A stretch of DNA of 64,000 nt from Microbacterium sp. SORGH_AS_0969. GTDB lineage: Bacteria > Actinomycetota > Actinomycetes > Actinomycetales > Microbacteriaceae. The stretch is taken from contig NZ_JAUTAG010000001.1 of assembly GCF_030818255.1 (NCBI RefSeq), forward strand, positions 124,001 through 188,000, read 5' to 3'. Below the pieces are notes generated by a model. That model was not told the DNA's origin. It saw only the letters and a program-made list of their open reading frames with translations, and ran no database searches. Shown piece by piece: positions 3,317-31,481 of the stretch (within the stretch, counting starts at the first letter, position 1; each line of letters starts with the position of its first letter). A program made the position numbers and the translations under genes.

Positions 3317-4828
3317 ATGCTGCGCCGCACTGCCCTCGCCACGAGCGCGCTCCTGATCTCAGCCCTGCTGCTCACCTCGTGCACGGGCTCGAACACCGCG
3401 CCCGGCCCGACCGGCGAGGCCGACCCGAACGCCACTCTCACGGTGCGCCTGTCGCTCGAGCCGTCGAACCTCGACATCCGCCACACCAGCGGAGCCGCCC
3501 TCGAGCAAGCCCTCGTCGACAACGTCTACCAGGGCCTCGTGACCCGCAACGGCGACGAGAACAACGCGATCGTGCCCGCGCTGGCCACCGAGTGGAACGT
3601 CTCGCCCGACGGTCTGACGTACACGTTCACGCTCCGTCAGGGCGTCACGTTCCACGACGGCAGCGCGCTCACCGCCGACGACGTCGTCACCTCGCTGCAG
3701 ACCGCGAAAGACGACGCGACGGTGCAGAGCAGCGCCGACCTCGCGAATGTGGCATCCCTCTCCTCCCCCGACGCGTCCACCGTCGTCGTCACGCTCGCGA
3801 AGCCCAACATCGACTTCCTGTTCGCGCTGACGGGTCGCGCGGGCCTGATCTTCAAGAACGGCGACACGACGAGCCTCCAAACCGCCGAGAACGGCACGGG
3901 TCCCTTCCGCGTCGCGTCGTGGAACACGGGACAGAGCCTCACGCTCGCCCGGTACGACGGCTACTGGGGCGACAAGGCGGGAGTCGCCGAAGTCGTGCTC
4001 GACTACATCCCCGACCAGAGCGCGGCCACCAATGCGGCGGTCAGCGGCGACGTCGATGTCGCGCTCGAGATCGACCCCGACCTGCAGGGCCAGATCGAGG
4101 GGACCGGCAACTTCACGATCGAGTCCGGGCTCACCACCGACAAGGGCACCCTCGCGTTCAACAACCAGCGCGCCCCCCTGAACGACCAGCGCGTGCGCGA
4201 GGCCCTGCGTCTCGCGGTCGACCACAACGCGCTCGTCGAAACGCTGGTCACGGCGCAGCCGCTGAACGGTCCGATCCCCCCGCTCGACCCCGGCTACGAA
4301 GACCTCACGGGCAGCGTGTCGTACAACCCCGATCGTGCGCGCGAGCTGCTCGCCGAGGCGGGGGCCGACAACCTCACGCTCACGCTGAAGATCCCGAACG
4401 TCTACCCGAGCACGCTCGCCACCTTCCTCGTGTCGTCGTACGCCGATGTGGGAGTCACGCTCAAGGTCGACTCCGTCGACTTCTCCACGTGGCTGACCGA
4501 CGTGTACACCAACCACGACTACGACCTGAGCTTCGTGCGCCACGTCGAGGCCCGGGACTTCGGCAACTGGGCCGACCCGACCTACTACTTCGGCTTCGAC
4601 AACGCCGAGGTCCAGCGACTGTACGCGGAGGCCCTGGCGAGCACCGACGACCAGCAGTCGTCCGACCTCCTCGCCGAAGCCGCGCAGATCGTCGATGATC
4701 AGGATGCCGCCGACTGGCTGTTCCTCTCGGCCCCGCGCACCGCGGTCGCCACGAACGTGTCGAACTTCCCGAAGAACTCGCTGAACGTGCGCCTGCCGCT
4801 GGCGGGCGTGACCGTCTCGTCGGAGTGA
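3317..4828 (+). CDS. Oligopeptide/nickel-type ABC transporter substrate-binding lipoprotein
   Basis: The 503-residue lipoprotein of the SBP_bac_5 family captures its ligand outside the membrane for the transporter encoded next. It begins with a lipoprotein signal peptide ending LLTSC (lipidated Cys22). Family landmarks are LEPSNLDIRHTSGAAL, ATEWNVSPDGLTYTFTLRQG with VTFHDGSALTADDV, and FNNQRAPLNDQRVREALRLA. Ligands in this family are di- or oligopeptides, nickel or glycosides; sequence alone does not decide. GAAAGGA lies ten bases before the ATG. The stop overlaps the first permease start as GTGA. Confidence 0.88.
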   Translation: MLRRTALATSALLISALLLTSCTGSNTAPGPTGEADPNATLTVRLSLEPSNLDIRHTSGAALEQALVDNVYQGLVTRNGDENNAIVPALATEWNVSPDGLTYTFTLRQGVTFHDGSALTADDVVTSLQTAKDDATVQSSADLANVASLSSPDASTVVVTLAKPNIDFLFALTGRAGLIFKNGDTTSLQTAENGTGPFRVASWNTGQSLTLARYDGYWGDKAGVAEVVLDYIPDQSAATNAAVSGDVDVALEIDPDLQGQIEGTGNFTIESGLTTDKGTLAFNNQRAPLNDQRVREALRLAVDHNALVETLVTAQPLNGPIPPLDPGYEDLTGSVSYNPDRARELLAEAGADNLTLTLKIPNVYPSTLATFLVSSYADVGVTLKVDSVDFSTWLTDVYTNHDYDLSFVRHVEARDFGNWADPTYYFGFDNAEVQRLYAEALASTDDQQSSDLLAEAAQIVDDQDAADWLFLSAPRTAVATNVSNFPKNSLNVRLPLAGVTVSSE

Positions 4829-5776
4829 TCCGCTACGCGCTGACACGGCTGGGCCTGCTCGTGCTGGGCCTGGCCGTGGCCAGCGCGCTGATCTTCCTCT
4901 CGCTCCGGGTGCTCCCGGGCGACGTCGCCCAGCTGGTCGGGGGCACGCAGGCGAGCCCCGAGCAGGTCGCCGCGTTGCGCGAGAGGCTCGGGCTGAACGT
5001 CCCGCTGTGGCAGCAGTACCTCGACTGGATCGGCGGACTCTTCCGCGGCGACCTCGGCAGCTCGCTTCTCACGGGTACGCCGGTGATGAGCGAGCTGCTC
5101 AGCAAGGCGCAGGTGACCGTGCCCCTCGCGGCGATGTCGCTCACGGTGGCCCTCGTCGTCGGCATCCCCCTCGGAGTGATGTCGGCCCTGGGCCGTCGGA
5201 GCGCGGGCGGGACCGCGATCAGCGTCGGGGCGCAGGCTCTCGCAGCCGTCCCCGTCGTGTGGGCGGGGATGATGCTCGTCGTCGTGTTCGCCGTGTGGCT
5301 GGGGTGGCTCCCACCGCAGGGCTTCCCCCGTGCCGGCTGGAACGATCCGGCTGCGGCGTTCCGGGCGCTCGTGCTGCCGGCGGTGACGATCGGCGTGGTC
5401 GAGGGGGCGATGCTCCTCCGCTTCGTGCGGAGCGCGACCCTGCAGGCGCTCGGCCAGGACTACGTGCGCACGGCGGCCGCGAAGGGCCTCACCCGGACGG
5501 CGGGCACTGCTGCGCCACGGCCTGCCCAACGTGGGCCTGTCGATCATCACGGTGCTGGGGCTCCAGATCGCGGGGATCATCGTGGGCGCTGTCGTCATCG
5601 AGCAGCTGTTCACCCTCCCCGGCGTGGGGCGCATGCTGGTCGCCGACGTGGCGGCGCGCGACCTCCCCAAGGTGCAGGGAGAGCTGCTCGCCCTGACCGG
5701 TTTCGTGCTCATCGTCGGCTTCGTCGTCGATCTCGTCCACCGGCTGATCGACCCCCGGCAGAGGGAGGCCTCGTGA
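4825..5776 (+). pseudogene. ABC transporter permease (DppB/OppB type), frameshifted
   Basis: The N-terminal part reads normally from the GTG at 4825 (IRYALTRLGLLVLGLAVA, then FRGDLGSSLLTGTPV) up to YVRTAAAKGLTRT. The frame then becomes nonsense, while the expected continuation RALLRHGLPNVGLSIITVLG appears one frame over and runs to TGA 5774-5776. Removing one G near 5500 restores a full permease of about 316 residues with the EAA-like loop and the LFTLPGVGRMLV segment. The uncorrected frame runs on in phase into the second permease as a false 605-residue fusion. Either a sequencing/assembly error or a true inactivating mutation is possible. The other four operon genes look intact, which slightly favours an error. 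Confidence 0.85.
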
Positions 5777-6642
5777 GCACCCTCAGACGTCTCTGGGCCC
5801 TCGGCACCGGGCGGTTCGGCATCCTGATCGTCGTTCTGCTGGTCGTGGTCGCCCTCGTCTCGTTCGTGTGGACGCCGTTCGACCCCGCCGCGGTCGATGC
5901 CCGCGCGCGCTGGACCGACCCGTCCTGGCCGCACGTACTCGGCACCGACAACAACGGCCGCGACATCGCGAGCCTCCTCATGGCCGGCACGCGCACGACG
6001 ATCGCGGTCGCGGTGGGCGCCGGGGTCGTCGCCTCGGTGCTCGGCATCGCCCTCGCCGCTCTCGGCTCGCTCACCGCCCGGTGGATCCGCGAAAGCGTCG
6101 CGGTGCTCGTCGACATCCTCGTCGCCTTCCCCGTGCTGATCATCGCGATGATGATCTCGGCCGTGTGGGGCGGCTCGCTCGCCGTGGTGATCTGGGCCGT
6201 CGGGATCGGCTTCGGCGTGAACATCGCGCGCGTCACCCGACCGGAGCTGCGCCGGGTGCTGCAGAGCGACTTCGTCCTGGCGGGGCGCGCGAGCGGGCTC
6301 ACGACGTGGCAGAACCTCACGCGGCACCTGCTCCCGAACGTCGCGCCCGTCTTCATCGTGCAGTTGTCGTGGGGCATGGCCGTCGCCGTCCTCGCGGAGG
6401 CGGGCCTGTCGTACCTCGGCTTCGGCGCCCCGATCACCCAGCCGTCGTGGGGGGTGCTTCTCAACGACCTGCAGGCCTACATCGCCGTGCACCCGCTGAC
6501 GGTGGTGTGGCCGGGGCTCGCGATCACCCTCACCGTGCTCGGACTCAATCTGCTCGGAGACGCTCTCCGCGAGGCCGCCGATCCGACGCTCGCCGAGCGC
6601 ACGTCCGCCGCTCGCACCCATGTGCCGGGGGTGGTCGCGTGA
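5773..6642 (+). CDS. ABC transporter permease (DppC/OppC type)
   Basis: The 289-residue inner-membrane protein starts at a GTG that overlaps the preceding stop as GTGA. It has a short cytoplasmic N-terminus, a first membrane segment (FGILIVVLLVVVALVSFV), the DppC-typical HVLGTDNNGRDIASLLMAG, and the EAA loop LAGRASGLTTWQNLTRHLLP. The last part, GLSYLGFGAPITQPSWG, is also characteristic of the family. It pairs with the DppB-type permease to form the pore. About six membrane segments are expected. Confidence 0.9.
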   Translation: MSTLRRLWALGTGRFGILIVVLLVVVALVSFVWTPFDPAAVDARARWTDPSWPHVLGTDNNGRDIASLLMAGTRTTIAVAVGAGVVASVLGIALAALGSLTARWIRESVAVLVDILVAFPVLIIAMMISAVWGGSLAVVIWAVGIGFGVNIARVTRPELRRVLQSDFVLAGRASGLTTWQNLTRHLLPNVAPVFIVQLSWGMAVAVLAEAGLSYLGFGAPITQPSWGVLLNDLQAYIAVHPLTVVWPGLAITLTVLGLNLLGDALREAADPTLAERTSAARTHVPGVVA

Positions 6643-7499
6643 GTCTCCGGGTGACCGACCTGCGCGTCGAGATCGACGGTCGCGCCGTCGTCGACGGGAT
6701 CTCGTTCGAGGTGCCCGACGGTGCCCGCGTCGGCCTCATCGGAGAGTCCGGTTCGGGCAAGTCGCTGACGGCCCTCGCGATCCTCGGGCTGCTCCCCGAC
6801 GGCGCTCGCGCCACCGGTAGCGTCCGCTGGAACGACCTCGAGATCCTCGGCCTTCCGGATCGCGACCTCGCCACCCTGCGGGGCGACGACATCGGCATGG
6901 TCTTCCAGGAACCCCGCACCGCTCTCAACCCCCTCCACACGGTGGGCCGACAGATCGGCGAATCCGTGCGCATCCACGAGAGGGTCTCGCGTCGTGAAGC
7001 GCTCCGACGCGCCGTCATCGAGGCCGAGCGCGTGGCCCTGCCCGACCCCGAGCGCATCGTGTCGCGCTACCCGCACCAGCTCTCGGGCGGTCAGCGTCAG
7101 CGGGTCGCGATCGCGATGGCGCTCGCATGCCGTCCGCGTCTGCTCATCGCCGACGAGCCGACCACCGCTCTCGACGTGACCATCCAGGCCGGTGTCCTCT
7201 CGCTGTTGCGTGAACTGGTCCAGGATGCCGGGATGTCGCTCGTCTTCATCACCCACGACCTCGCGGTCCTCGCGCAGGTCGCGACCCACGCGGTCGTCCT
7301 CGAGCACGGACGCGTGGTCGAGCGGGGCGAGGTCTCGGAGCTGCTGCGCGCACCGTCGTCCCCGATCACGCAGGCCCTGCTGCGGGATGCGACGGCGACG
7401 CTGTGGCATCCGGAGCATCCTGGTCGGGATGCCGGGACCCCGGACGATCCGCCCACGTTCGCGCACGGCGAAGGTTTCGCGGACGAGGAGGCGCCGTGA
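6639..7499 (+). CDS. ABC transporter ATP-binding protein (DppD/OppD type)
   Basis: The 286-residue ATPase powers peptide-type import. Walker A is GESGSGKS (Lys41), the Q-loop region is [17 protein letters not shown], the signature is [15 protein letters not shown], Walker B is [12 protein letters not shown], and the switch histidine is in FITHDLAV. The GTG start overlaps the permease stop as GTGA. The C-terminus is shorter than in OppD proteins that carry the oligopeptide C-terminal extension (oligo_HPY). Confidence 0.9.
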
Positions 7500-20986: not shown

Positions 20987-20992
20987 TACGAT
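20987..20992 (+). promoter_or_regulatory. -10 element of the lipoprotein/ATPase operon
   Basis: TACGAT lies 36 bases before the ATG of the lipoprotein gene, which predicts a leader of about 29 bases containing a G-rich Shine-Dalgarno. No good -35 hexamer is seen at the expected distance, so activation or an alternative sigma factor is possible. Confidence 0.45.
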
Positions 20993-21028
20993 CGACGGCG
21001 GCTGCCGGACGGTGTTCAAGGGGGACGG

Positions 21029-23872
21029 ATGTCAGTGGGGAAATCTGTAGAGGGTCGGCGTGCGCTGCCGCGCGTCATCGCGGCGATGGTCGCTGTCGGC
21101 GCGCTCGTCACGGTGACCGCGTGCACGAACGGCGAGGCGCAGATCACGCCCACCCGACTGCTGCAGTCCGTCGCCGTCGGGGTCACCACCGACGCCGCCA
21201 TCCAGAGCGTGCAGTCCACGACGATCGCCATCGGCAACTCCCCCTCGGAGACGACCAGCGAGACGGCCTCGTTCACCCCGGCCGACGTCGCGAACGACAT
21301 CCCCGTGCGTATCCGCACCTCGTACCGCACCGCGGACTCGAGCGGCACCGACCTGGGCGACCTCAAGGGCTACTCGGGCCGCGTCGAGATCGACGTCACG
21401 ATCGAGAACCTCACCGTGAAGCCCCAGGAGCTGACCTACGACGCCGCGGGTCAGTCGCGCACACGCGAAGCGCTCGTGGGCGCGCCCCTGACGATCGCCG
21501 CGTCGACCGTCCTCGGAGGCGTGGCCCCCAGCCGCGTGGTCATCGACTCCGACACCGACTCCGCCGTGACCAACGGCGTGCTGAGCCGCTCCGACGACGG
21601 CGACGCCGTGGTGCAGTGGGCGTCGCTGCTCGCCCCGCCCTCCGGTCGCGCCAGCAGCACCCTCACCCTTGTCGCCGACGTCGACGACTTCTCGGTGCCC
21701 GCGTTCGACATCGCGGTGCAGCCGGGGATCTCGACCGATCCGTCGATCGGCGGTGTCCTCGACGCGGCGTTCAACGACGACCCCACGTCGCAGCTCGCCC
21801 TCCAGCGCCGCACCATCGAGGTCGTCGCGGCGGTCAACGAGGTGCTCGGCCGCGCGGGCACCACGATCACCGAGGTACGCACGAACCTCGAGAGCACGGC
21901 CGACACCCTGGGTGTGCGCACGGCGCGAGAGCTCGCCGACAGCACCACCTCGCTCGGAACGTCGATGCGGGGTCTCACCGCGCAGCTCACGGGTCTGCAG
22001 TCCGACCTCTCGACGACGGTGAACAGCACCAACTCGGCGGTCCTCCAGCAGCTCGGCAGCGCCCTGTCGGCCGTCGACGGCATGCTCGGTGACACCAGCG
22101 CACCGCCGCCCCCGTCGATCCCGAGCGGCAGCGGATGCTCGGCGACGTCGACGATCCCGGGCGAAGCGAACACGATCTACGGCAACATCCAGCGCCTCGC
22201 GGTCGAGCTCGACAACTACGCCTCCGCCGCCGACGAGTGCAAGGGCGAGGTGCAGAACGCGCTGCGCTCGACCATCGGCCCCGACGCTCCCAGCGCCGAC
22301 ACCTGCCAGACCCCGTCGACGACGTGCGCCCTGTTCAGCGCCCAGGGCGAGGTGAACGCCACCCTCGCCCAGCTGGTGGTCGACGGTCGCGAGCTCGTCG
22401 ACTCTCTCAAGCCCGAGCTCATGTCGTCGGTCGTGACGCAGTTCGACCAGACCTCGCAAGCCGTCGAAGCCGTTCAGGACGCGACGAAGAAGGTCACCGA
22501 CGGCCTCCCCGACGGCTCCGTCCCGCAGTCGCTGGGCGAGGTCAGCGCGGCGCTCGACACGCTGTCGGGTTCGCTCGGATCGCTCAACTCCGCGCTGTCG
22601 CAGGTCAACCAGATCGCTCGCGACGCCCAGACGGAGTTGGGCAACCCGGATGTGCGCGGCTCGATCCGCGAGCAGGCGAACCGACTGGCGGACGAGATCT
22701 GCACTCTCGCCCCGGACGACGACTGGACTCCCCCCGGCGGCGGCAACGAGCCCACGCCCAAGCCCACCTCGACGTCCGGAACGGACGGCGACGGCAACGG
22801 CGACGACTCCGACGCGAAGAGCTCCTCCTCCCCGGTCGTCATCGGCGGCCCGACGCTCGCCGAGGTCGACCGTCTGCGCTCGTTCCTCACGTCCGAGGGA
22901 TGCGAGGGAGACCAGCTCTCGACCCCGTGGGGTTATTCGGCACCGCTCCTCGACCGCCTGAAGGCCGACACCGCCGCGTGGATCAGCGTCGATGAGAAGA
23001 CGCAGCCCTCCGGCGACCTCGGCACCGCCATCGCGGGCCTGCTCGACCAGACCTCGAAGGTCCGCGACGCGGTCAACCGCATCAGCTCCTCCGCGTGGAA
23101 CGGCAACGAGAACCTCACCGCCCTGGTGACCTCGCTGACCGACTCGACGAAGGCCCTCGCCGACCAGCGCACCGAGCTCGACCAGCGCATCAACGCCCTC
23201 AAGAAGCAGCAGGACGGCCTCGGCCCGAGCATCGAGCGGGCATTCGCCGACGCCGACGCCGAGGCGGCCAAGAAGGTCTCGGCCCTCATCGAGGAGCAGG
23301 TGCGCGTCATCTCGGCCCGCGGGAAGACGGATGCCGCCACCATCGGCGCCATGTTCGACCGTTCCGTGTCGGGTCTGACCTCGACCTCGACCGACATCGC
23401 GCAGAGCGGCAAAGAGACCGTCGAGTCGCAGCGCGACGATCTCAACGCCGCCGGCGAGGCGATCTCGCAGAGCGTCTCCGCGCAGACCCTGTCGTCGCTG
23501 TCGTCGATCTCGTCGAGCATCGGCGCCGCCACCCGTGACACGGACGGCGCGTCCTCGCTCCTGCAGGCCGACCTGAACAAGGTCCTCCTCGACCTGGGCG
23601 ACCGTCAGGTCAACGGCTCGGGACTGCTGGGTTCGATGGTCACCAGTGCCGCGAAGGTCGACACCGCCGACGTCCAGCTCGCCCTGGCCTCGCAGCAGGC
23701 GCAGGGATACGCCAACGTGCGCTCCGAAGACGTCGCGGGCATCCTGCTCCAGCAGGCGCAGACGCAGGCCTCGCTGGAGGCCGGAGCGAAGCTGCCGCCG
23801 TTCCACATCGAGGCTCCCGCGGGCGCCGCGACGCAGACGGTGTACACCTTCCGGATCGGAGACGGCAAGTGA
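21029..23872 (+). CDS. Large coiled-coil surface lipoprotein of unknown function
   Basis: The 947-residue protein is not recognised by family. A lipoprotein signal ends VTVTAC (Cys32). Residues of about 50-260 are beta-rich. Long heptad-like helices follow, with many Leu/Val spaced by three and four, and a Gly/Asp/Pro/Ser-rich linker with PTPKPTSTSGTDGDG lies near 575-610. A second helical region (about 680-860, with ALIEEQVRVISARGK) precedes a C-terminal segment ending VYTFRIGDGK. Paired Cys (DTCQTPSTTC and others) suggest disulfides outside the cell. Its end overlaps the next gene as GTGA. The size and coiled coils recall EsaA/YueB of type VII systems, but it is lipid-anchored rather than polytopic; that comparison is inference. 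Confidence 0.8.
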   Translation: MSVGKSVEGRRALPRVIAAMVAVGALVTVTACTNGEAQITPTRLLQSVAVGVTTDAAIQSVQSTTIAIGNSPSETTSETASFTPADVANDIPVRIRTSYRTADSSGTDLGDLKGYSGRVEIDVTIENLTVKPQELTYDAAGQSRTREALVGAPLTIAASTVLGGVAPSRVVIDSDTDSAVTNGVLSRSDDGDAVVQWASLLAPPSGRASSTLTLVADVDDFSVPAFDIAVQPGISTDPSIGGVLDAAFNDDPTSQLALQRRTIEVVAAVNEVLGRAGTTITEVRTNLESTADTLGVRTARELADSTTSLGTSMRGLTAQLTGLQSDLSTTVNSTNSAVLQQLGSALSAVDGMLGDTSAPPPPSIPSGSGCSATSTIPGEANTIYGNIQRLAVELDNYASAADECKGEVQNALRSTIGPDAPSADTCQTPSTTCALFSAQGEVNATLAQLVVDGRELVDSLKPELMSSVVTQFDQTSQAVEAVQDATKKVTDGLPDGSVPQSLGEVSAALDTLSGSLGSLNSALSQVNQIARDAQTELGNPDVRGSIREQANRLADEICTLAPDDDWTPPGGGNEPTPKPTSTSGTDGDGNGDDSDAKSSSSPVVIGGPTLAEVDRLRSFLTSEGCEGDQLSTPWGYSAPLLDRLKADTAAWISVDEKTQPSGDLGTAIAGLLDQTSKVRDAVNRISSSAWNGNENLTALVTSLTDSTKALADQRTELDQRINALKKQQDGLGPSIERAFADADAEAAKKVSALIEEQVRVISARGKTDAATIGAMFDRSVSGLTSTSTDIAQSGKETVESQRDDLNAAGEAISQSVSAQTLSSLSSISSSIGAATRDTDGASSLLQADLNKVLLDLGDRQVNGSGLLGSMVTSAAKVDTADVQLALASQQAQGYANVRSEDVAGILLQQAQTQASLEAGAKLPPFHIEAPAGAATQTVYTFRIGDGK

Positions 23873-25134
23873 AGCGTCGCACCGTCGCCCTGATCGCCGG
23901 GGCCGCCGCCGTGGTCCTCGTCGCCGCCGGGGTCACCACCTGGTCGCTCACGCGCCCCACCGAGGCCCAGGCGGTCGGCTCGATCCCCGTCGCGATCTCG
24001 GCACCGGTCCCCGATGACCTGACGATCGGCGTGATCGTCTCGCTCTCCTCCGCTCCGGGCGAAGGCGCGGAGTGGAAGGATGCCGCGAACGGCGCGGTCG
24101 TGGCCGCCCGCCGCCTGGCGCTCGGCGGTCACGACATCACGGTCCGCGCCGTGGACGACAAAGGCACCGCCGACGGCGCTCGCGCCGCCGCGCAGGAGCT
24201 CGTCGACGACGGAGCCGCCGGCATCGTCGTCGCCACGAGCGGGTCGCACGTCACCGGCGCGGTCGAGGTCGCCCGCTCGGCAGGCGTCCCCGCCGTCCTC
24301 CCGTACGTGAGCGACGGCTCGCTCGCGGGCGACGGCGTCTGGTTGACGGGCCCCACGAGCGACGCGATCAGCGCGGCTCTTCCCGCAGCACTGAAGGGCG
24401 CCTCGTCCGTCCTCCTCGTGGACGCCGGGTACGGTACGCCCGCGGGTCTCTCCCCCGCCGCCATCGTGCCGTTCGCCGCCGGCGGTGACGCCGCGGCCTT
24501 CCGTGCCGCCGTCGCCGCGGCCCGTGGATCGCGTCCCCTCGACGCGGTTCTCATCAACGGGCCCGCCTCGACGCAGGCGAGCGTGGTGCAGCTGCTCCAG
24601 AGCGACGACGCCGATCTCCCGATCGTCGTCACCCCCGAGGCCACGTCGCCGGCGTTCTCCGAGGCGCTCGTGTCCGCGGGCGGCACCCTCTCGACCGACC
24701 TGACCACGGTCGGCGCGGGCTGGAGCGACACCGTCGCCCTCTCGTCCGACGCCGATGGCCGAGCCATGTCCGCCTTCCTCGCGGGCGTGCGCGTCGTCGC
24801 CGACGACTCCTCGGCCACGACGCTCTTCGAGGACCGCTCGTTCGCCTCCGTCGCCGGCCTCGCCGACTCGCGCAGTCACGACGCCACCGTCCTGCTCGCG
24901 CTCGCCGCGGCATCCGCCGGTAGCACCGAACCCTCCGCGGTCGCCTCGGCGCTCGGCACATTGTCGGCCGGCGCGGCCGACGGCATCGCCGGTCCGCAGC
25001 TCGACGGCACGAAGCCCACCGCCCTGGTCCCCGGAATCGTTCCCCTGTATTCGGCGGATCAGAACCTGGGTCTGCGCCCCCTGTCGACCGACACCACCGC
25101 ACCGCTGGTGTGGTTCGCCGGACAGCCCGACTGA
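23869..25134 (+). CDS. Membrane-anchored LivJ-like periplasmic-binding protein
   Basis: The 421-residue protein has one N-terminal membrane segment (TVALIAGAAAVVLVAAGVTT) without a lipobox, then a type 1 periplasmic-binding fold. Typical features are TIGVIVSLSSAPGEGAEWKD, NGAVVAARR, DDKGTADGARAAAQELV and VATSGSHVTGAVEVA, then SAGVPAVLPYVS. Such domains bind amino acids or other small ligands. No permease or ATPase of an ABC importer is nearby. In this operon it is more likely a sensor or structural partner of the FtsK-type ATPase encoded 18 bases downstream. The GTG start overlaps the lipoprotein stop. Confidence 0.75.
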   Translation: MKRRTVALIAGAAAVVLVAAGVTTWSLTRPTEAQAVGSIPVAISAPVPDDLTIGVIVSLSSAPGEGAEWKDAANGAVVAARRLALGGHDITVRAVDDKGTADGARAAAQELVDDGAAGIVVATSGSHVTGAVEVARSAGVPAVLPYVSDGSLAGDGVWLTGPTSDAISAALPAALKGASSVLLVDAGYGTPAGLSPAAIVPFAAGGDAAAFRAAVAAARGSRPLDAVLINGPASTQASVVQLLQSDDADLPIVVTPEATSPAFSEALVSAGGTLSTDLTTVGAGWSDTVALSSDADGRAMSAFLAGVRVVADDSSATTLFEDRSFASVAGLADSRSHDATVLLALAAASAGSTEPSAVASALGTLSAGAADGIAGPQLDGTKPTALVPGIVPLYSADQNLGLRPLSTDTTAPLVWFAGQPD

Positions 25135-25152
25135 CATCTCCCGGAGGCTCCG

Positions 25153-28100
25153 ATGCGTCTGCTGATCGCGATCGACGAAGACGAGCAGGTGGTCGACCTC
25201 GCCCGTCACCGCAGCCAGGCGACGCTGGGCGAACTGATCGCGGCGGCGACGGGACACGATCTCGCCCCCGACACCCTCGTCGCGGTCGACGCCGAGCGTC
25301 ACCCCGCCTCGACGGCGCTGAGCGAGGTGCTGATCCTCGAGGGCACCCGCATCGCCCTCTCGGCGTCGCCCCGACCGAAGCCCGCGACAGACTGGACGGC
25401 GACCCTGTCCGGCGGGTTGGAGGCCGGACCGGTCGTCGACGTGCCGCGCGGGCGGGCGCTGATCGCGGGACGCTCCCCCCAGGCCGACCTCAGGCTCCCC
25501 ACCACGAGCGCCTCGTGGGAGCACTTCTCGGCCGCGCGCGACGAAGACGGGCTCCGCGTCGACGACCGCGGATCGACGAACGGCACCCTCGTCGACGGCA
25601 CAGCCGCCGCCGAGGACGGCACGGTCGTCGAGGGTCCCGCCGTCATCACCGCGGGAGGCACGACCGTGCTCCTGCGCCCCTCGATCGATGAGACCGGTGC
25701 CCCCGAGCCCGGCTCCCTGCACAACATCACCCCCGCCGCGACCGCGCCCTTCAACCGTCCGCCGCGGCCCGGCCGGCCGCCGGAGCCCGAGCCGATCACG
25801 CCGCCGACCCACAAAGACGTCCCGCCGGCGTCGAAGTTCAGCATCATCACGGTTGCGGCGCCCCTCGTGCTCGCGTTCGCGATGGTCCTCATGCTCGGCG
25901 ACGCGCGGTACGCCCTGTTCGCCGCGCTCAGCCCCATCCTGGGCGTCGGCGTGTGGTTCGAGCAGAAACGCCGCTACACCCGGAACGTCAAAGAAGAAGA
26001 CGAACGGTTCGCCCAAGCCCTGCAGACCCTTCGCGACGACATCGCGTCGGCCGGTCAGGCCGAGAAGGCCCGGAGAATGGATGCCATTCCCGACCCGGCC
26101 ACGACGCTCCGCCGCGCCGCGATCCCCGCGACCACGCTGTGGCAGCGCCGTGCGGGCTCGCCCGACCTTCTCGCCCTGCACGCCGGCATCGGCGATGTGC
26201 CGTGGCGCCCCGCGACCGACGAACGCTCGGGCACCCGCCTCGAGGACGACGTCCGCCAGATCCTCGACACCGCCGCCATCCCCGCCGCACCGGTCGAGAT
26301 CGACCTCACCGCCGGCGGAGTCGTGGGAATCGTCGGCGACCGCGACGGGGCTCTCGCGCTGGCCCGGAGCCTCGTCATCCAGGCGGGCATCCATGTCGGC
26401 CCGGCCGATCTGACCGTCGGCGTTTTCTGCGATGCCGGCCGCTCTCCCGAATGGGCGTGGGCGGGTTGGCTCCCGCACACGCGCCGACAGGGCACGGGCA
26501 CCCAGGAACGCTGGATGTCCGACAACCGCGAACGCAGCACCGACCTTCTGCGGGGCCTTCGCGACGGCATCCACGACATCCCGACGGCGGCCGTTCTCCT
26601 CGTGCTGGACTCCGACGTGCTCACCGAGGGTCGCAACGCCCCCGCGCGCGAGCTCCTCGGCCATGGCCGACCGGACGGTGCGACCACTCTGTCGCGCGAC
26701 CGTCAGGGCGTGCAGGTCTCGGGGATCGTCCTCGCGTCGTCCGAAGAGCAGCTCCCCGCCGCGTGCACCGTCGTGGTGCGAGTGGCGCCGGATGCCGCGG
26801 CCACCGTCACGCGTCCCGGTGACCTCGTGACGGTCGACGACGTCATCCTCGCGGGCATCGACGTCGACACCGCCGCAGCGGGAGCCCGCGATGTCGCCCG
26901 CTTCGACGATCCCGAGCTGGTCGTCCCGGGCGCGGCGCTGCCCGGCCTCGTGCGTCTCCCCCCGCTCCTCGGCCTGGACGAGGTGACGGCGGCGGCGGTC
27001 CGCGAGCTGTGGGCCAACGCCCGCGGCATCACCGCGCCCATCGGGACGGGCGAGGGCGGCACGATGGAGCTCGACCTCGTGCACGACGGCCCGCACGGTC
27101 TCGTCGGCGGCACGACCGGCTCGGGCAAGAGCGAGTTCCTCCGCTCGCTCGTCGCGGGGCTCGCCCTGCGCAACGACCCCACCCGCCTGAGCTTCATCCT
27201 CATCGACTTCAAGGGCGGCGCGGCCTTTGCGGCGTGCGAGCGGCTCCCGCACACGATCGGCACCATCAGCAACCTCGACGAACAGCTGGCCGACCGCGCC
27301 CTCCGCTCCCTCGAGGCCGAGATGCGGCGGCGCCAGCGCATCTTCGCCGCGGCGGGCGAGGGCGTCGACAACCTCGACGCCTACCTCGCGACGAAGCCCG
27401 CCGAGCCCATGCCGCGGCTGCTGCTCGTCGTCGACGAGTTCGCGATGCTCGCCAAGGACTTCCCCGACGTGCTGTCGTCGCTCGTGAGCGTCGCCGCCGT
27501 CGGCCGTACGCTCGGCGTCCACATGATCCTCGCCACCCAGCGCCCCGCGGGTGTCGTCAACGACGACATCCTCGCGAACACGAACCTCCGGGTCGCTCTG
27601 CGCGTGCAGAGCCGCGACGACTCGAACAACGTGATCGGTGTCCCGGCGGCATCCGCGATCGGTCGCGCCCAACGCGGTCGCGCGTACATCAAGCGCGGAC
27701 AGGACGACATCGCGCCCGTGCAGACCGCGCTGGTCACCGGCGCCTCGGAGCGCGCCGTCGTCGAGGCCGTCGAGCTGCAACCGGTGACGTTCTCGGGGAT
27801 CGCTCCCGCGTCCAAGACGACCGTTGTCGACGACTCGACGACCGACCTCGACGTCGTGATCGATGCCATCCGCGCGGCGGCCGACGAGGCGGGGATCGCC
27901 GCTCCGCGACCGGTGTGGCCCGAGGCGTTGGGCGCCCGTGTGCCGCTGGCCGGGTTCGGCGACGACGCCACGGCGTCGGGGGTCCTCGCGGTGGGCGGCG
28001 TGCAGGGTGCGGAGGTGTTCTTCGCCCTCGCCGATGAGCCGGACAGTCAGCGGCAGGTCGCCGCCGGGTGGAACCTGTCGCGGGGCAACCTGCTCGCGGT

Positions 28101-29436
28101 CGGCATCCCCGGCAGCGGCACCAGCACGGCCCTGTCATCGATCGCTCTGGCCCTCGCGGCCGAGTCGCACCCCGACGACCTCGACATCCTCGTGCTCGAT
28201 GCCGGTGCCCGCGACCTCGCGCCCCTCGCCGACCTGCCCCACACCGTGGCCTACGTGGGGGCCGGGGGCGGTGCGCGCGAGCAGCAGGCGCGATTCCTGC
28301 GCCACCTCCGCACCGACCTCGAGCGGCGCCGCGCCGACGAGGGACAGCGGCGCCGCGCGATCGTGCTGATCGACGGGCTGGCGGCCCTGCGCGACGAGTT
28401 CCAGGACCACGAGGGACAGCAGCTCCTTGACGGCCTCTACCGCGCGTACGCCGACGGCCCCGAGCTCGGCCTGCATTTCGCCGTGTCGACGACCCGCGCC
28501 AAGGCGGTCCCCTCTGCGATCGACGAGGTCACCACCCAGAAGTGGATGTTCCGCCTCGCCGACCCCTACGACTACACCTCCGCGGGCCTGCGCCCCAAGG
28601 ACGCCCCGGCATCGGTACCGGGTCGCTGCGTCCTCGCCGAATCAGCCCGGCAGGCGCACGTCGCCACCCCCGCCGGCGGCTTGGCCAGCGCCGTCACCCG
28701 CGTGAAAGAGACGTACGCGGGCGCCGCGCCGAAGGCTCCCGTGGTGGGCCGCCTGCCCGAGCAGGTCGGGATCGCCGACCTCGGCGTCGCGGCCGACCTC
28801 CGGCAGGAGCCGTGGCGCATCCCCATCGGCGTCGCCGAGTCCGACCTCGCCCCCGCTTTCCTCGAGGTCTACGAGGGCGAGCACGTCCTCGTCGCCGGAC
28901 CCGCCCGCTCCGGCAAGTCGACGCTGCTCCTCGCGATCGCGCAGGCCCTGCGGACGACTCCGGATGCCACGGCCCCGGTGACCGTGTGGGGTGTCTGCGG
29001 CCGCCGCTCACCGCTGGCCACGGCCGACCTCGACCGCGTCGTCGTCGGATCCGACGACATCCCCGCGCTCGTGGCATCCGTGCGTCTCGAGAAGGGGCCG
29101 GTCGTCATCCTGGTCGACGACGCCGAGTCGTTCGAGGATTCCGACCAGTCGCTCGCCGGCCTCCTCACGATGTCGCAGCCGCACGTGCTGGTCATCGCGG
29201 CGGGACGCTCCGCCGACCTCCGCGCGCAGTACTCCGGCTGGACGAAGACCCTGCGCAAGTCGCGCTGCGGGGTCCTGCTGCAGCCCGACGTCGACTACGA
29301 CGGCGATCTGCTGGGCGTCACGCTCCCCCGCCGCGCCCCCGTCGCCGTCACCACCGGCCGCGGGTACGCGTGCGTCGCGGGTGCGGCCCGCTTCGTCCAG
29401 GCGGCGGGGCCGTCGGTCGCCGTCCCCGCGGGCTGA
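25153..29436 (+). CDS. FHA-domain FtsK/SpoIIIE ATPase, EssC/EccC-like
   Basis: The 1427-residue motor has the layout of type VII secretion ATPases. Residues 1-90 look like a ubiquitin-type beta-grasp fold (DLARHRSQATLGELI). An FHA domain covers about 97-165 (LIAGRS at 103-108, GSTNGT at 140-145). A membrane hairpin lies at about 230-272. Three FtsK-type ATPase modules follow. D1 has a full Walker A GGTTGSGKS (Lys659) and Walker B LLVVDE (Asp761, Glu762). D2 has the degenerate GIPGSGTS, with Thr990 in place of Lys. D3 has GPARSGKST (Lys1255) and ILVDDAE. GGAGG precedes the ATG. FHA domains bind phosphothreonine, and a Ser/Thr kinase gene follows on the other strand. No WXG100 gene is visible nearby. 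Confidence 0.9.
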   Translation: MRLLIAIDEDEQVVDLARHRSQATLGELIAAATGHDLAPDTLVAVDAERHPASTALSEVLILEGTRIALSASPRPKPATDWTATLSGGLEAGPVVDVPRGRALIAGRSPQADLRLPTTSASWEHFSAARDEDGLRVDDRGSTNGTLVDGTAAAEDGTVVEGPAVITAGGTTVLLRPSIDETGAPEPGSLHNITPAATAPFNRPPRPGRPPEPEPITPPTHKDVPPASKFSIITVAAPLVLAFAMVLMLGDARYALFAALSPILGVGVWFEQKRRYTRNVKEEDERFAQALQTLRDDIASAGQAEKARRMDAIPDPATTLRRAAIPATTLWQRRAGSPDLLALHAGIGDVPWRPATDERSGTRLEDDVRQILDTAAIPAAPVEIDLTAGGVVGIVGDRDGALALARSLVIQAGIHVGPADLTVGVFCDAGRSPEWAWAGWLPHTRRQGTGTQERWMSDNRERSTDLLRGLRDGIHDIPTAAVLLVLDSDVLTEGRNAPARELLGHGRPDGATTLSRDRQGVQVSGIVLASSEEQLPAACTVVVRVAPDAAATVTRPGDLVTVDDVILAGIDVDTAAAGARDVARFDDPELVVPGAALPGLVRLPPLLGLDEVTAAAVRELWANARGITAPIGTGEGGTMELDLVHDGPHGLVGGTTGSGKSEFLRSLVAGLALRNDPTRLSFILIDFKGGAAFAACERLPHTIGTISNLDEQLADRALRSLEAEMRRRQRIFAAAGEGVDNLDAYLATKPAEPMPRLLLVVDEFAMLAKDFPDVLSSLVSVAAVGRTLGVHMILATQRPAGVVNDDILANTNLRVALRVQSRDDSNNVIGVPAASAIGRAQRGRAYIKRGQDDIAPVQTALVTGASERAVVEAVELQPVTFSGIAPASKTTVVDDSTTDLDVVIDAIRAAADEAGIAAPRPVWPEALGARVPLAGFGDDATASGVLAVGGVQGAEVFFALADEPDSQRQVAAGWNLSRGNLLAVGIPGSGTSTALSSIALALAAESHPDDLDILVLDAGARDLAPLADLPHTVAYVGAGGGAREQQARFLRHLRTDLERRRADEGQRRRAIVLIDGLAALRDEFQDHEGQQLLDGLYRAYADGPELGLHFAVSTTRAKAVPSAIDEVTTQKWMFRLADPYDYTSAGLRPKDAPASVPGRCVLAESARQAHVATPAGGLASAVTRVKETYAGAAPKAPVVGRLPEQVGIADLGVAADLRQEPWRIPIGVAESDLAPAFLEVYEGEHVLVAGPARSGKSTLLLAIAQALRTTPDATAPVTVWGVCGRRSPLATADLDRVVVGSDDIPALVASVRLEKGPVVILVDDAESFEDSDQSLAGLLTMSQPHVLVIAAGRSADLRAQYSGWTKTLRKSRCGVLLQPDVDYDGDLLGVTLPRRAPVAVTTGRGYACVAGAARFVQAAGPSVAVPAG

Positions 29437-29491
29437 GCGGAACGCCTGCTCCGCACGCGACTCGGCGCGCCCCAGCGCGACTCCGCGCGCC

Positions 29492-31450
29492 TCAGCGCGT
29501 CGTGATGCCGAACGGCGGGCTCACGAGGTCGGTGAAGTTGCCGACCCGCGCACGTACCGTGCAGTCGGGGGCGACCGACAGCGCCGTCACCACGAGACCG
29601 TCCGATGAGACCGTCAGCGCTCCGGCGCACCCGTCGCTGAAGCGCACCCCGCTGGTCCCCCCGGCGACGGCGTCGAGCATGGCGCTCGGCTCCCCGACCG
29701 ACGGGCTCGTGAACAGGGGGTTCACCGGATCCGGACCGCTGGGCCAGACGGGGAGCAGCGTGACGGGCAGCGCCGTCCCGCCGACGGTGCGAGAGGGCGT
29801 CGTGACCTGAACGCTGCGCAGCCGCTGCACGGGATACGCCGCCCCCGACACCTCGGAGTCCGAGATCGCCTTCGTCGTGGCCGTCGCGGCCGCCTTCAGC
29901 CAGGCATCGACGGCTTCCTGGCCGTTCAGCGCGATCGAGACCTGAGCGGTGACGGTGACCGAGTCCTGCGTCGGGACGGTCAGGCCGTCGACGCTCCAGC
30001 CGCAGGGCACCGAGATGCCGGTGACGCTCGCTTGGTTGCGATCGACCGTGGCATCCGACCACGTGACGGCGGGACACGCGTCCGATTCCGCGGCCCCGGG
30101 CAGCACCTCGAGGAACGGCCCGCCGAGGGGAGCATTCTGCGCGCCGTATTCGATCGTGACGGTCGCCAGCTTCTTCTCCGGGTCGTAGCTGACCGAGCGG
30201 CTCACGCTCAGCCCGGTCGGCAGGGCCCGGTCCTGCTGGCTGGAGGTCACGACGGGTCCGGCCGCCGCCGGTGCGGCCTCCCCCGCGGGAGGACGGAACA
30301 CGAAGAACGCCGCGACCGCGGCCACGGCGACCACCGCGGCGCCCGCGATCCAGAGGGCGCGGCCGCGCGGCATCCGCGTCCACAGCGAGGTCTTCGCCTC
30401 GGGCTCTGCCTCGACCGGCTGGGGCGCCTCGCGACGCGGCATCGGTCGGAGCACCGTCGTCTGGGTCGCCGCACCGAGGTCGGGCGCCGGCTCGTCCGAC
30501 GACGCCGCGACCGGTTCGGGAGCCGTCGGGGCGACGCCCCGGAGCACGGTCGCGGGTCTCTCGGCCTCGGCGAAGCCCTCGGGAGCCGCGACCGGCGTGA
30601 GAGCCGCGAGCTCCGCGACCGACCCTCGTAGGCGCCGCAGGGTCGTCGCGGCCTCCGTGGCCGACGGGCGCTCCGCCGGCGCTTTCGCGAGCAGGCGGGC
30701 GAGAACACGCCAGAGGTCGTCGGGCACGTCAAGGCGGGGCACTTCGGCGCTGACGTGCCGATACGCGACGGTGAAGTCGGTACCCGGACCGGCGAACGGC
30801 GTCCGACCCGAGAGGAGTTCGTAGAGCAGGATGCCGGTGGCATAGACGTCGCTCGGAGGCCCGGCCTCGCCGAGGGTGACGAGTTCGGGCGACATGTACT
30901 CGGGCGTGCCGATGACGGCGGTCGTCGAGCGGCGACGCTCGTCGAGCACGCGCGCGATGCCGAAGTCGACGACACGGACGGCAGCCCCGGGGTCGTCGCC
31001 GTCTCGCGCGTCACGATCGAGGAGGACGTTGTCGGGCTTGATGTCGCGGTGGACCGTGCCCACCGCGTGCGCGGCGGCCAGCGCGTCGAGCACGGCCGCG
31101 GTGAGGGCGACGGCTTCGGCGGGCCGCAGGGTGCCGCGCTCGTCGAGGGCCTGACGCAGGCTCCCGCCCTCGACCAGGTCCATGACGATCGCGAGGCGCT
31201 CGCCCTCGACCACGAGGTCGCGCACCGCGACGACGTGCGGGTCGCGCAGTCGGGTGAGCACGGTGCGCTCGCGGATGAACCGCTCGACGAGGTCGGCATC
31301 CTGCGCGTGTTCCCGGCGGAGCACCTTCGCGGCGCGCAGTGACTCGTCGCGCACGTCGCGCACACGCCACACCTCGCCCGCGGCGCCGGATCCGATCCGA
31401 TCGACGAAACGGTACGAGGCGCCCAGCGCCTCACCGATCTCCGGTTCCAC
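29492..31450 (-). CDS. Transmembrane Ser/Thr protein kinase
   Basis: The 652-residue Hanks-type kinase has P-loop GSGAAGEV (20-27), Lys42, the catalytic loop HRDIKPDN (134-141), DFG (162-164) and activation segment GTPEYMSPE, all intact. A Pro/Ala/Glu-rich linker with two TVLR motifs leads to one membrane segment (about 366-385). An extracellular domain of about 265 residues follows, with Cys residues and no PASTA repeats. It ends convergent with the FHA-ATPase gene, 55 bases away, and probably phosphorylates members of that system. The GTG at 31448-31450 is preferred: a G-rich Shine-Dalgarno and a TAAATT -10 (31476-31481) lie upstream, and the longer reading is Arg-rich non-coding sequence. 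Confidence 0.9.
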   Translation of the reverse strand: MEPEIGEALGASYRFVDRIGSGAAGEVWRVRDVRDESLRAAKVLRREHAQDADLVERFIRERTVLTRLRDPHVVAVRDLVVEGERLAIVMDLVEGGSLRQALDERGTLRPAEAVALTAAVLDALAAAHAVGTVHRDIKPDNVLLDRDARDGDDPGAAVRVVDFGIARVLDERRRSTTAVIGTPEYMSPELVTLGEAGPPSDVYATGILLYELLSGRTPFAGPGTDFTVAYRHVSAEVPRLDVPDDLWRVLARLLAKAPAERPSATEAATTLRRLRGSVAELAALTPVAAPEGFAEAERPATVLRGVAPTAPEPVAASSDEPAPDLGAATQTTVLRPMPRREAPQPVEAEPEAKTSLWTRMPRGRALWIAGAAVVAVAAVAAFFVFRPPAGEAAPAAAGPVVTSSQQDRALPTGLSVSRSVSYDPEKKLATVTIEYGAQNAPLGGPFLEVLPGAAESDACPAVTWSDATVDRNQASVTGISVPCGWSVDGLTVPTQDSVTVTAQVSIALNGQEAVDAWLKAAATATTKAISDSEVSGAAYPVQRLRSVQVTTPSRTVGGTALPVTLLPVWPSGPDPVNPLFTSPSVGEPSAMLDAVAGGTSGVRFSDGCAGALTVSSDGLVVTALSVAPDCTVRARVGNFTDLVSPPFGITTR

Positions 31451-31475
31451 CCGTTCCCCCCGCTCTCCCTCTCTC

Positions 31476-31481
31476 AATTTA
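31476..31481 (-). promoter_or_regulatory. -10 element of the Ser/Thr kinase gene
   Basis: The minus strand reads TAAATT, unusually A/T-rich for this genome, about 26 bases before the GTG start with a purine-rich Shine-Dalgarno tract between. No convincing -35 was found. Confidence 0.5.

What the first reader, a model, noticed from the sequence alone, without database searches (positions are those of the whole stretch)
20987..31481. Possible uncharacterised envelope system: coiled-coil lipoprotein, LivJ-like anchor, FHA-EssC-type ATPase and convergent transmembrane kinase
Three tightly packed plus-strand genes (GTGA overlap, then 18 bases) encode a 947-residue coiled-coil lipoprotein, a membrane-anchored type 1 binding protein and a 1427-residue FHA/triple-FtsK ATPase. 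A Ser/Thr kinase with one membrane segment and an extracellular domain ends 55 bases away. The ATPase has EssC/EccC architecture. The kinase has the kinase-fold/TM/outside layout of EssB, but with intact catalytic residues. The lipoprotein could replace EsaA. No WXG100, EccB/D/E, EsaA, mycosin or ABC permease gene is seen within 20 kb. A phospho-switch (kinase to FHA) controlling a secretion or envelope-surveillance motor is a reasonable inference.
Basis: partly seen in the sequence, partly recalled or inferred. Interest (0 to 1): 0.85.

Follow-up and report, generated by a model that had tools for sequence, protein, structure and literature searches.

The report
Actinobacterial type VII-like secretion cassette
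Four genes in this bacterium look like the core of a so far undescribed version of a protein-export machine that probably sends out toxins against rival bacteria, with a built-in protein kinase and two outward-facing anchored proteins whose role is open.

Summary
The four genes are as described: lipoprotein, anchored binding protein, FHA/triple-FtsK ATPase, convergent membrane kinase. In 80 named relatives the first three keep their order in 73. In 41 of 80 loci a WXG100-like gene lies within the fetched flanks; 33 of these 42 genes are directly followed by an Rhs polymorphic-toxin gene. Ordinary WXG100 models match it only below cut-off. The window's own genome has it, with an Rhs gene, far from the cassette, plus a second Rhs gene. 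In 120 Microbacteriaceae the WXG100 occurs in exactly the four genomes with the ATPase orthologue; lipoprotein and kinase ectodomain in three of these. A separate EccC/EccD locus has its own ATPase, so this is not its detached motor. Best reading: a type VII-like secretion system. Closest published: T7SSd, which shares WXG100, FHA-ATPase and kinase; its TsdH and TsdI were not recognised here, and its ATPase could not be compared. A phospho-switch (two near-invariant kinase linker threonines to an intact FHA site) is inferred, not shown.

The parts
21029..23872 (+). Lipoprotein (P0001, 947 aa): signal peptide with lipobox VTAC, confidently modelled N-terminal beta domain (about 43-235), long helical region, conserved C-terminal end with a last strand (934-943)
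   Evidence: 3 strong hits in 120 family genomes, the same 3 as the kinase ectodomain
23869..25134 (+). N-terminally anchored type 1 binding-protein-like protein (P0002, 421 aa); ligand unknown
   Evidence: Peripla_BP_6 3e-13; alignment profile hits amino-acid binding proteins in PDB, best 1.2e-7
25153..29436 (+). Secretion ATPase (P0003, 1427 aa): FHA, membrane segment about 226-257, three FtsK domains
   Evidence: in a clade of 41 of 53 rows apart from own EccC and from type-2 FHA-FtsK
25153..25362 (+). ATPase residues 1-70: possible ubiquitin-like (beta-grasp) domain
   Evidence: weak but consistent: PDB profile hits mostly ubiquitin-like, E from 0.009; Pfam SLBB, SAMP2, ThiS weak in 1-2 of 20 members, none for the window's own; hhalign against own EccD N-terminus only 18.6% probability
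25465..25602 (+). FHA domain of the ATPase with intact phosphothreonine-site residues (R107, S121, H124, N143; roles recalled)
   Evidence: R 84, S 83, H 82, N 81 of 85 ATPases
29492..31450 (-). Ser/Thr kinase (P0004; 652 aa from GTG 31450): kinase domain, variable linker, one membrane segment, beta-rich ectodomain
30455..30550 (-). Juxtamembrane linker with two T-hydrophobic-x-R sites (T312 and T343 in P0004 numbering; T301 and T332 from the GTG start)
   Evidence: T in 64 of 65 and 65 of 65 kinases, R at +3 in 60 of 65 each
29495..30223 (-). Kinase ectodomain with four invariant cysteines, mostly beta, high model confidence
   Evidence: 3 of 120 family genomes; no PDB sequence hit up to E 10

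Best explanation
The four genes are the machine part of a type VII-like protein secretion system. SHOWN (comparative genomics): the FHA/FtsK ATPase is tied to a WXG100-like protein and to Rhs polymorphic toxins that begin with a conserved domain; in this genome these lie at other places of the chromosome; lipoprotein, binding protein and kinase are mostly inherited together and are absent from deep-branching WXG100+ATPase loci. INFERRED: the ATPase moves the WXG100 protein and Rhs toxins through the membrane, driven by its first FtsK domain (Walker A invariant); the lipoprotein, binding protein and kinase ectodomain form the outer part that assembles the channel or senses an outside cue (ligand or contact); the kinase phosphorylates its two linker threonines, the ATPase FHA domain docks there, and export is switched on. 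The use is most likely antagonism between bacteria. Sub-confidences: T7-like secretion of WXG100 and Rhs 0.8; lipoprotein/binding protein/kinase as one outer unit 0.6; phospho-docking switch 0.45; binding protein senses a small ligand 0.25.
For: Gene order in 73 of 80 relatives. WXG100-like gene in 41 of 80 loci (42 genes), a gene of the Rhs cluster directly downstream of 33 of 42; of 38 further genomes searched 31 have it elsewhere. All six genes in one block on Rothia terrae plasmid p2. In 120 Microbacteriaceae the ATPase orthologue (best bits 3101 to 918, next 444) and the WXG100 are in the same 4 genomes, lipoprotein and kinase ectodomain in the same 3 of these. Own genome: WXG100-like E 5.5e-52 with a divergent intact 1803-aa Rhs gene; a second Rhs protein, 78% identical over 1611 columns with a tip that does not align. 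Loci of other classes keep WXG100 and ATPase without the other three. Kinase Lys, HRD, Asn, DFG in 64-65 of 65; the exception is a pseudokinase in Propioniciclava that lacks the ectodomain, in a genome without detected lipoprotein. FHA site and linker threonines.
Against: No secretion, phosphorylation or binding was measured. In the window genome machine and substrates are not linked. 7 of 38 genomes searched showed no WXG100 (incomplete drafts and MAGs among them). The usual second export feature of WXG100 dimers, a C-terminal acidic residue (PMC13355648), is not conserved (D in 25, N in 16, unmatched in 1 of 42; N here). The FHA site is degenerate in two of four loci of other classes (L146, L147). 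9 of 42 WXG100 genes are not directly followed by Rhs (one is at a contig end). The pseudokinase is a single genome. Four reduced loci are nested in the tree, so the outer parts can be lost.
Confidence: 0.72

Rival explanations
1. It is the published subtype T7SSd, and lipoprotein plus binding protein are lineage-specific replacements of TsdI and TsdH.
For: Same trio WXG100, FHA-ATPase with intact phosphothreonine site, membrane kinase; Rhs gene beside it; Bifidobacterium named for T7SSd (PMC11217815); a Bifidobacterium apri locus has the orthologous ATPase (50% identity) with WXG100 and Rhs; no ubiquitin-like gene recognised among the widely recurring neighbours.
Against: Nothing like TsdI's description (1654 aa, signal peptide, C-terminal membrane helix, Ig-like) recurs; the lipoprotein has no C-terminal hydrophobic segment; TsdD's outer region is called extensively helical, ours is mostly beta. 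TsdC itself was not in hand.
Confidence: 0.3
2. An envelope-surveillance or signalling complex in which the ATPase does not export proteins.
For: Kinase ectodomain, binding protein and lipoprotein face outward by prediction; in this genome no substrate gene is nearby.
Against: WXG100 and Rhs co-occurrence, also when unlinked; WXG100+ATPase is kept where the outer parts are absent.
Confidence: 0.1
3. The lipoprotein, binding protein and kinase only regulate or hitch-hike with the locus and are no part of the machine.
For: Loci without them exist.
Against: 4-base overlap of lipoprotein and binding-protein genes in 54 of 73 and tight ATPase linkage; strict co-occurrence.
Confidence: 0.15
4. Detached ATPase of the EccC/EccD type VII locus of the same genome.
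For: Such a locus exists at C1 about 1.62-1.63 Mb.
Against: It has its own EccC over both curated cut-offs and an ESAT6-family gene over its cut-off; the window ATPase is below all three T7 ATPase cut-offs and in another clade.
Confidence: 0.03

Closest known systems
T7SSd (Garrett et al. 2024, PMC11217815; Olsenella, Bifidobacterium)
   Same: WXG100, FHA-ATPase with conserved phosphothreonine site, kinase with membrane segment and outer region, Rhs gene beside it
   Different: Lipoprotein and binding protein where T7SSd has TsdH and TsdI; beta-rich kinase ectodomain; loci seen here are mainly Micrococcales and Propionibacteriales; orthology of the ATPases not tested
T7SSb (EssC, EssB, EsaA, EsxA; features partly recalled)
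   Same: FHA-FtsK ATPase, single WXG100, kinase fold with membrane segment, long helical outer protein, polymorphic toxins
   Different: Catalytically intact kinase, lipoprotein instead of membrane-spanning EsaA, extra binding protein, phosphothreonine site intact; ATPase below the EssC cut-off
T7SSa / ESX (EccB, C, D, E, mycosin; recalled)
   Same: Triple-FtsK ATPase and WXG100-like protein
   Different: FHA on the ATPase, no EccD found beside the cassette; the genome has a separate EccC/EccD locus

Membership tests
Type VII secretion system (general) | EccC/EssC-type membrane ATPase with repeated FtsK domains | tested here: met
   Three FtsK stretches and a membrane segment; TIGR03928 3e-142 though under cut-off
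Type VII secretion system (general) | Cognate WXG100 protein | tested here: met
   W-x-G in 42 of 42 members, but by motif and weak matches only: own copy PF06013 0.0025 and TIGR03930 7e-4, both under cut-off; PDB profile hits include ESAT-6-like/EsxB chains, E 0.12-0.44
Type VII secretion system (general) | C-terminal acidic export residue of the WXG100 dimer | tested here: not met
   D in 25, N in 16, unmatched in 1 of 42; tested at one aligned position only
Type VII secretion system (general) | ATPase-dependent secretion of WXG100 and toxins | not testable with these tools
   needs bench work
T7SSd | WXG100 + FHA-ATPase with conserved phosphothreonine site + membrane kinase | tested here: met
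   definition from PMC11217815
T7SSd | TsdI: about 1654 aa, signal peptide, C-terminal membrane helix, Ig-like domains | tested here: not met
   No such protein among widely recurring neighbours; the lipoprotein lacks a C-terminal hydrophobic segment. TsdI's sequence itself was not compared, nor the rest of the genome searched for it
T7SSd | TsdH: single membrane helix, short cytoplasmic part | tested here: inconclusive
   No widely recurring small gene besides the WXG100 near the cassette; a very short gene could be missed
T7SSd | ATPase in the TsdC clade | not testable with these tools
   no named TsdC sequence in hand; phylum-wide ATPase searches failed
T7SSb | EssC equivalog | tested here: not met
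   475.7 bits against cut-off 778.4
T7SSb | EssB pseudokinase | tested here: not met
   catalytic residues intact in 64 of 65, window included
T7SSa | EccC equivalog | tested here: not met
   372.9 against 509.15 and 246.9 against 346.55
T7SSa | EccB, EccD, EccE, mycosin with the cassette | tested here: not met
   none among 20 neighbouring window genes scanned with Pfam; neighbours in relatives judged by cluster and appearance only

The most novel reading that the evidence does not exclude
A distinct type VII subtype of Micrococcales and Propionibacteriales in which a ligand- or contact-sensing outer complex (coiled-coil lipoprotein, LivJ-like protein, kinase ectodomain) drives an active kinase whose phosphorylated linker is docked by the FHA domain of the secretion motor, so that Rhs-toxin export is fired by an outside signal; the ubiquitin-like component thought missing from such systems is fused to the motor's N-terminus.
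Probability: 0.4. Interest if true: 0.85.

Novelty: new variant of a known kind. Interest (0 to 1): 0.72.

Why it matters
Type VII systems of Gram-positive bacteria export toxins against rivals and hosts, yet what turns them on is largely unknown. Here kinase, FHA motor, WXG100 and toxin form a small set (six genes in one block on a plasmid), with natural versions lacking the outer parts and one natural pseudokinase version, so the role of phosphorylation in type VII secretion becomes directly testable. In the one annotated record seen, the parts are named hypothetical protein (lipoprotein, binding protein), serine/threonine-protein kinase, FtsK/SpoIIIE domain-containing protein and, for the WXG100, pyrophosphorylase, so the system may well be overlooked elsewhere.

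Tried and rejected
Detached T7SSa motor: rejected. 'No WXG100 in the genome': the Pfam search found none, the family's own profile found one. Solved relatives of the lipoprotein: sequence hits are coiled-coil noise; Foldseek gave nothing at 0.001 or below, best AP2 mu2 at 1.7e-3 with low TM, not used. Solved relatives of the kinase ectodomain: none by sequence; the 50 listed Foldseek rows for the whole kinase are kinase domains. Defence-system library: strong kinase hits (PD-T4-6, mad6) and FtsK hits (mad8, SspH), taken as shared domains and not followed further. An ABC binding protein near locus L145 as source of the cassette's binding protein: it did not match the binding-protein profile, dropped. 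EccB, EccE and mycosin of the other type VII locus were not searched genome-wide. The lipoprotein search of nine reduced genomes held no positive genome of its own; the same profile hit strongly. The binding protein was not searched genome-wide. Of the Rhs cluster (54 members) two were scanned with Pfam, the rest go by cluster membership.
Full report
WHAT IS THERE. The ATPase has FHA, a membrane segment and three FtsK domains; the first Walker A is kept in 85 of 85 orthologues examined (80 loci, window, four loci of other classes), the second lacks its lysine (T in 84 of 85), the third keeps it in 82 of 85. It falls below the curated cut-offs of EssC, EccCa and EccCb. Kinase Lys, HRD, Asn and DFG stand in 64-65 of 65. 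Twenty neighbouring window genes gave metabolic, MFS, CNNM, IMPDH, ABC-transporter and like families or nothing, and no type VII part.

RELATIVES. With a home-made gene caller lipoprotein, binding protein and ATPase follow each other on one strand in 73 of 80. Of the seven others, three are cut by contig ends (L048, L064, L089) and four lack both genes at the locus (L056, L079, L084, L093). A kinase-family gene is in 64 of 80, next after the ATPase in 46; several of the other 16 loci end soon after the ATPase.

THE MISSING PARTNER. Clustering of neighbours showed a 93-aa family in 41 of 80 loci (42 genes) with an invariant W-x-G and 77% mean column identity in a 22-row alignment, and a 1500-1900-aa family whose two tested members are Rhs proteins (DUF6531, about 20 RHS repeats) and which begins with a conserved domain (10 sequences). 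A gene of that cluster follows the small gene directly in 33 of 42. Pfam WXG100 matches the small protein only below cut-off, which is why the plain WXG100 search of the window's genome was empty. With the family profile the genome has one copy, E 5.5e-52, at C1 3.29 Mb, divergent from an intact 1803-aa Rhs gene at C1 3293141-3298552, with an Imm26-family gene some genes further on. A second Rhs gene lies at about C1 1.43 Mb; the two are 78% identical over 1611 columns and then do not align, the mark of polymorphic toxins. The cassette is at C1 145-155 kb, so machine and substrates are unlinked here.

CO-OCCURRENCE. Among 120 Microbacteriaceae genomes, ATPase orthologues (bits 3101, 1832, 1124 plus a second piece, 918; next best 444) are in G000, G019, G035, G051. 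The bit threshold was set after seeing this gap. WXG100 is in exactly these 4 of 120; lipoprotein in G000, G019, G035 (a fourth hit, G069, E 2.8e-4, partial and in the helical region, is taken as chance); kinase ectodomain in the same 3 of 120. By simple counting the chance of identical sets is 1.2e-7 and 3.6e-6 (relatedness ignored, but the genomes are of four genera). Of the 39 loci without a WXG100 in the locus, 38 genomes could be searched and 31 have it elsewhere. In 396 genomes drawn across the phylum four have it, the window's included.

HISTORY OF THE SYSTEM. In G491, G499 (two loci) and G354, of other classes, WXG100 and FHA-ATPase stand without lipoprotein, binding protein or kinase-family gene in the 18-19 kb fetched; two of the four loci also have a small protein resembling the Rhs N-terminus (L147, L148). 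On the Streptantibioticus cattleyicolor megaplasmid there are ATPase, WXG100-like and a kinase gene. No lipoprotein was found in nine such reduced genomes. In the tree (53 rows, quick method, long branches flagged) the reduced loci built into it and the window form one clade of 41 rows (SH-aLRT 100), apart from the own EccC and from a second FHA-FtsK type of Microbacteriaceae; of ten reduced forms six branch deep and four (L056, L064, L079, L093) are nested and look like losses (the Streptantibioticus locus was not in this tree). In Propioniciclava (L056) the gene beside the ATPase is a pseudokinase without ectodomain; lipoprotein and binding protein are absent from the locus, the lipoprotein from the genome: kinase activity, ectodomain and outer proteins went together, in one case. 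Rothia terrae plasmid p2 carries all six genes in one block.

SIGNALLING SITES. The FHA phosphothreonine residues are kept in 81-84 of 85 ATPases. In the otherwise variable kinase linker only two threonine columns reach 85% identity: T312 (64 of 65) and T343 (65 of 65) in P0004 numbering, each with R at +3 in 60 of 65. Docking of the FHA domain on these sites is an inference from this and from known FHA behaviour (recalled).

STRUCTURES. Kinase model: mean pLDDT 81.9; ectodomain about 400-650 mostly above 85, beta-rich. Lipoprotein model: mean pLDDT 67, confident beta domain 43-235, helical region of partly low confidence, last strand 934-943. The outline recalls EsaA (from memory), but no fold match supports kinship. 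ATPase residues 1-70 give weak hits mostly to ubiquitin-like proteins, suggesting a fused ubiquitin-like part; hhalign against the own EccD N-terminus is weak.

LITERATURE. Seen: abstract, passages and sections 5, 7, 9, 15, 16 of PMC11217815, abstract with the start of the text and section 6 of PMC13355648, passages of PMC3482391; all other papers only in listings. PMC11217815 defines T7SSd (WXG100, FHA-ATPase, kinase, TsdH, TsdI; Rhs beside it in Olsenella uli). Within these nine searches no listed paper names the lipoprotein/binding-protein version; the supplements of PMC11217815 could not be read, so its accession lists may include some of these ATPases.

VERDICT. A real, conserved, type VII-like secretion machine, new variant of a known kind; secretion very likely, the phospho-switch plausible, the ligand or cue unknown.

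Noticed in passing
L117-L124, L131, L133, L134: A second FHA-FtsK type (about 1450-1500 aa, roughly 30-36% identical to P0003) in many Microbacteriaceae, with WXG100 genes beside it (PF06013 over cut-off in the two tested, L121 and L122): perhaps another undescribed type VII-like system.
   Followed up: partly
L153 7780-8061: The plasmid record's annotation names the WXG100-like protein of Rothia terrae plasmid p2 'pyrophosphorylase'.
   Followed up: no
   Followed up: partly
L145, L147: In G491 and G499 the WXG100+ATPase loci lie beside groEL-like genes (Cpn60 family confirmed for L145 only).
   Followed up: partly
L152 3204-5758: Three similar small proteins with a hydrophobic segment downstream of the second own Rhs gene, perhaps an immunity array; no Pfam match for the one tested.
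   Followed up: partly
L114 6423-14781: EccC/EccD type VII locus of the window's genome with an ESAT6-family gene and an FHA protein.
   Followed up: partly
L056 8825-9877: Pseudokinase (K to R, DFG to DAV, ectodomain lost) beside the ATPase in Propioniciclava, a parallel to EssB.
   Followed up: yes
window 3317-7499: Peptide-type ABC transporter (SBP_bac_5, BPD_transp_1 twice, ABC_tran); the first permease frame called is only 81 aa, so it may be broken or miscalled.
   Followed up: partly
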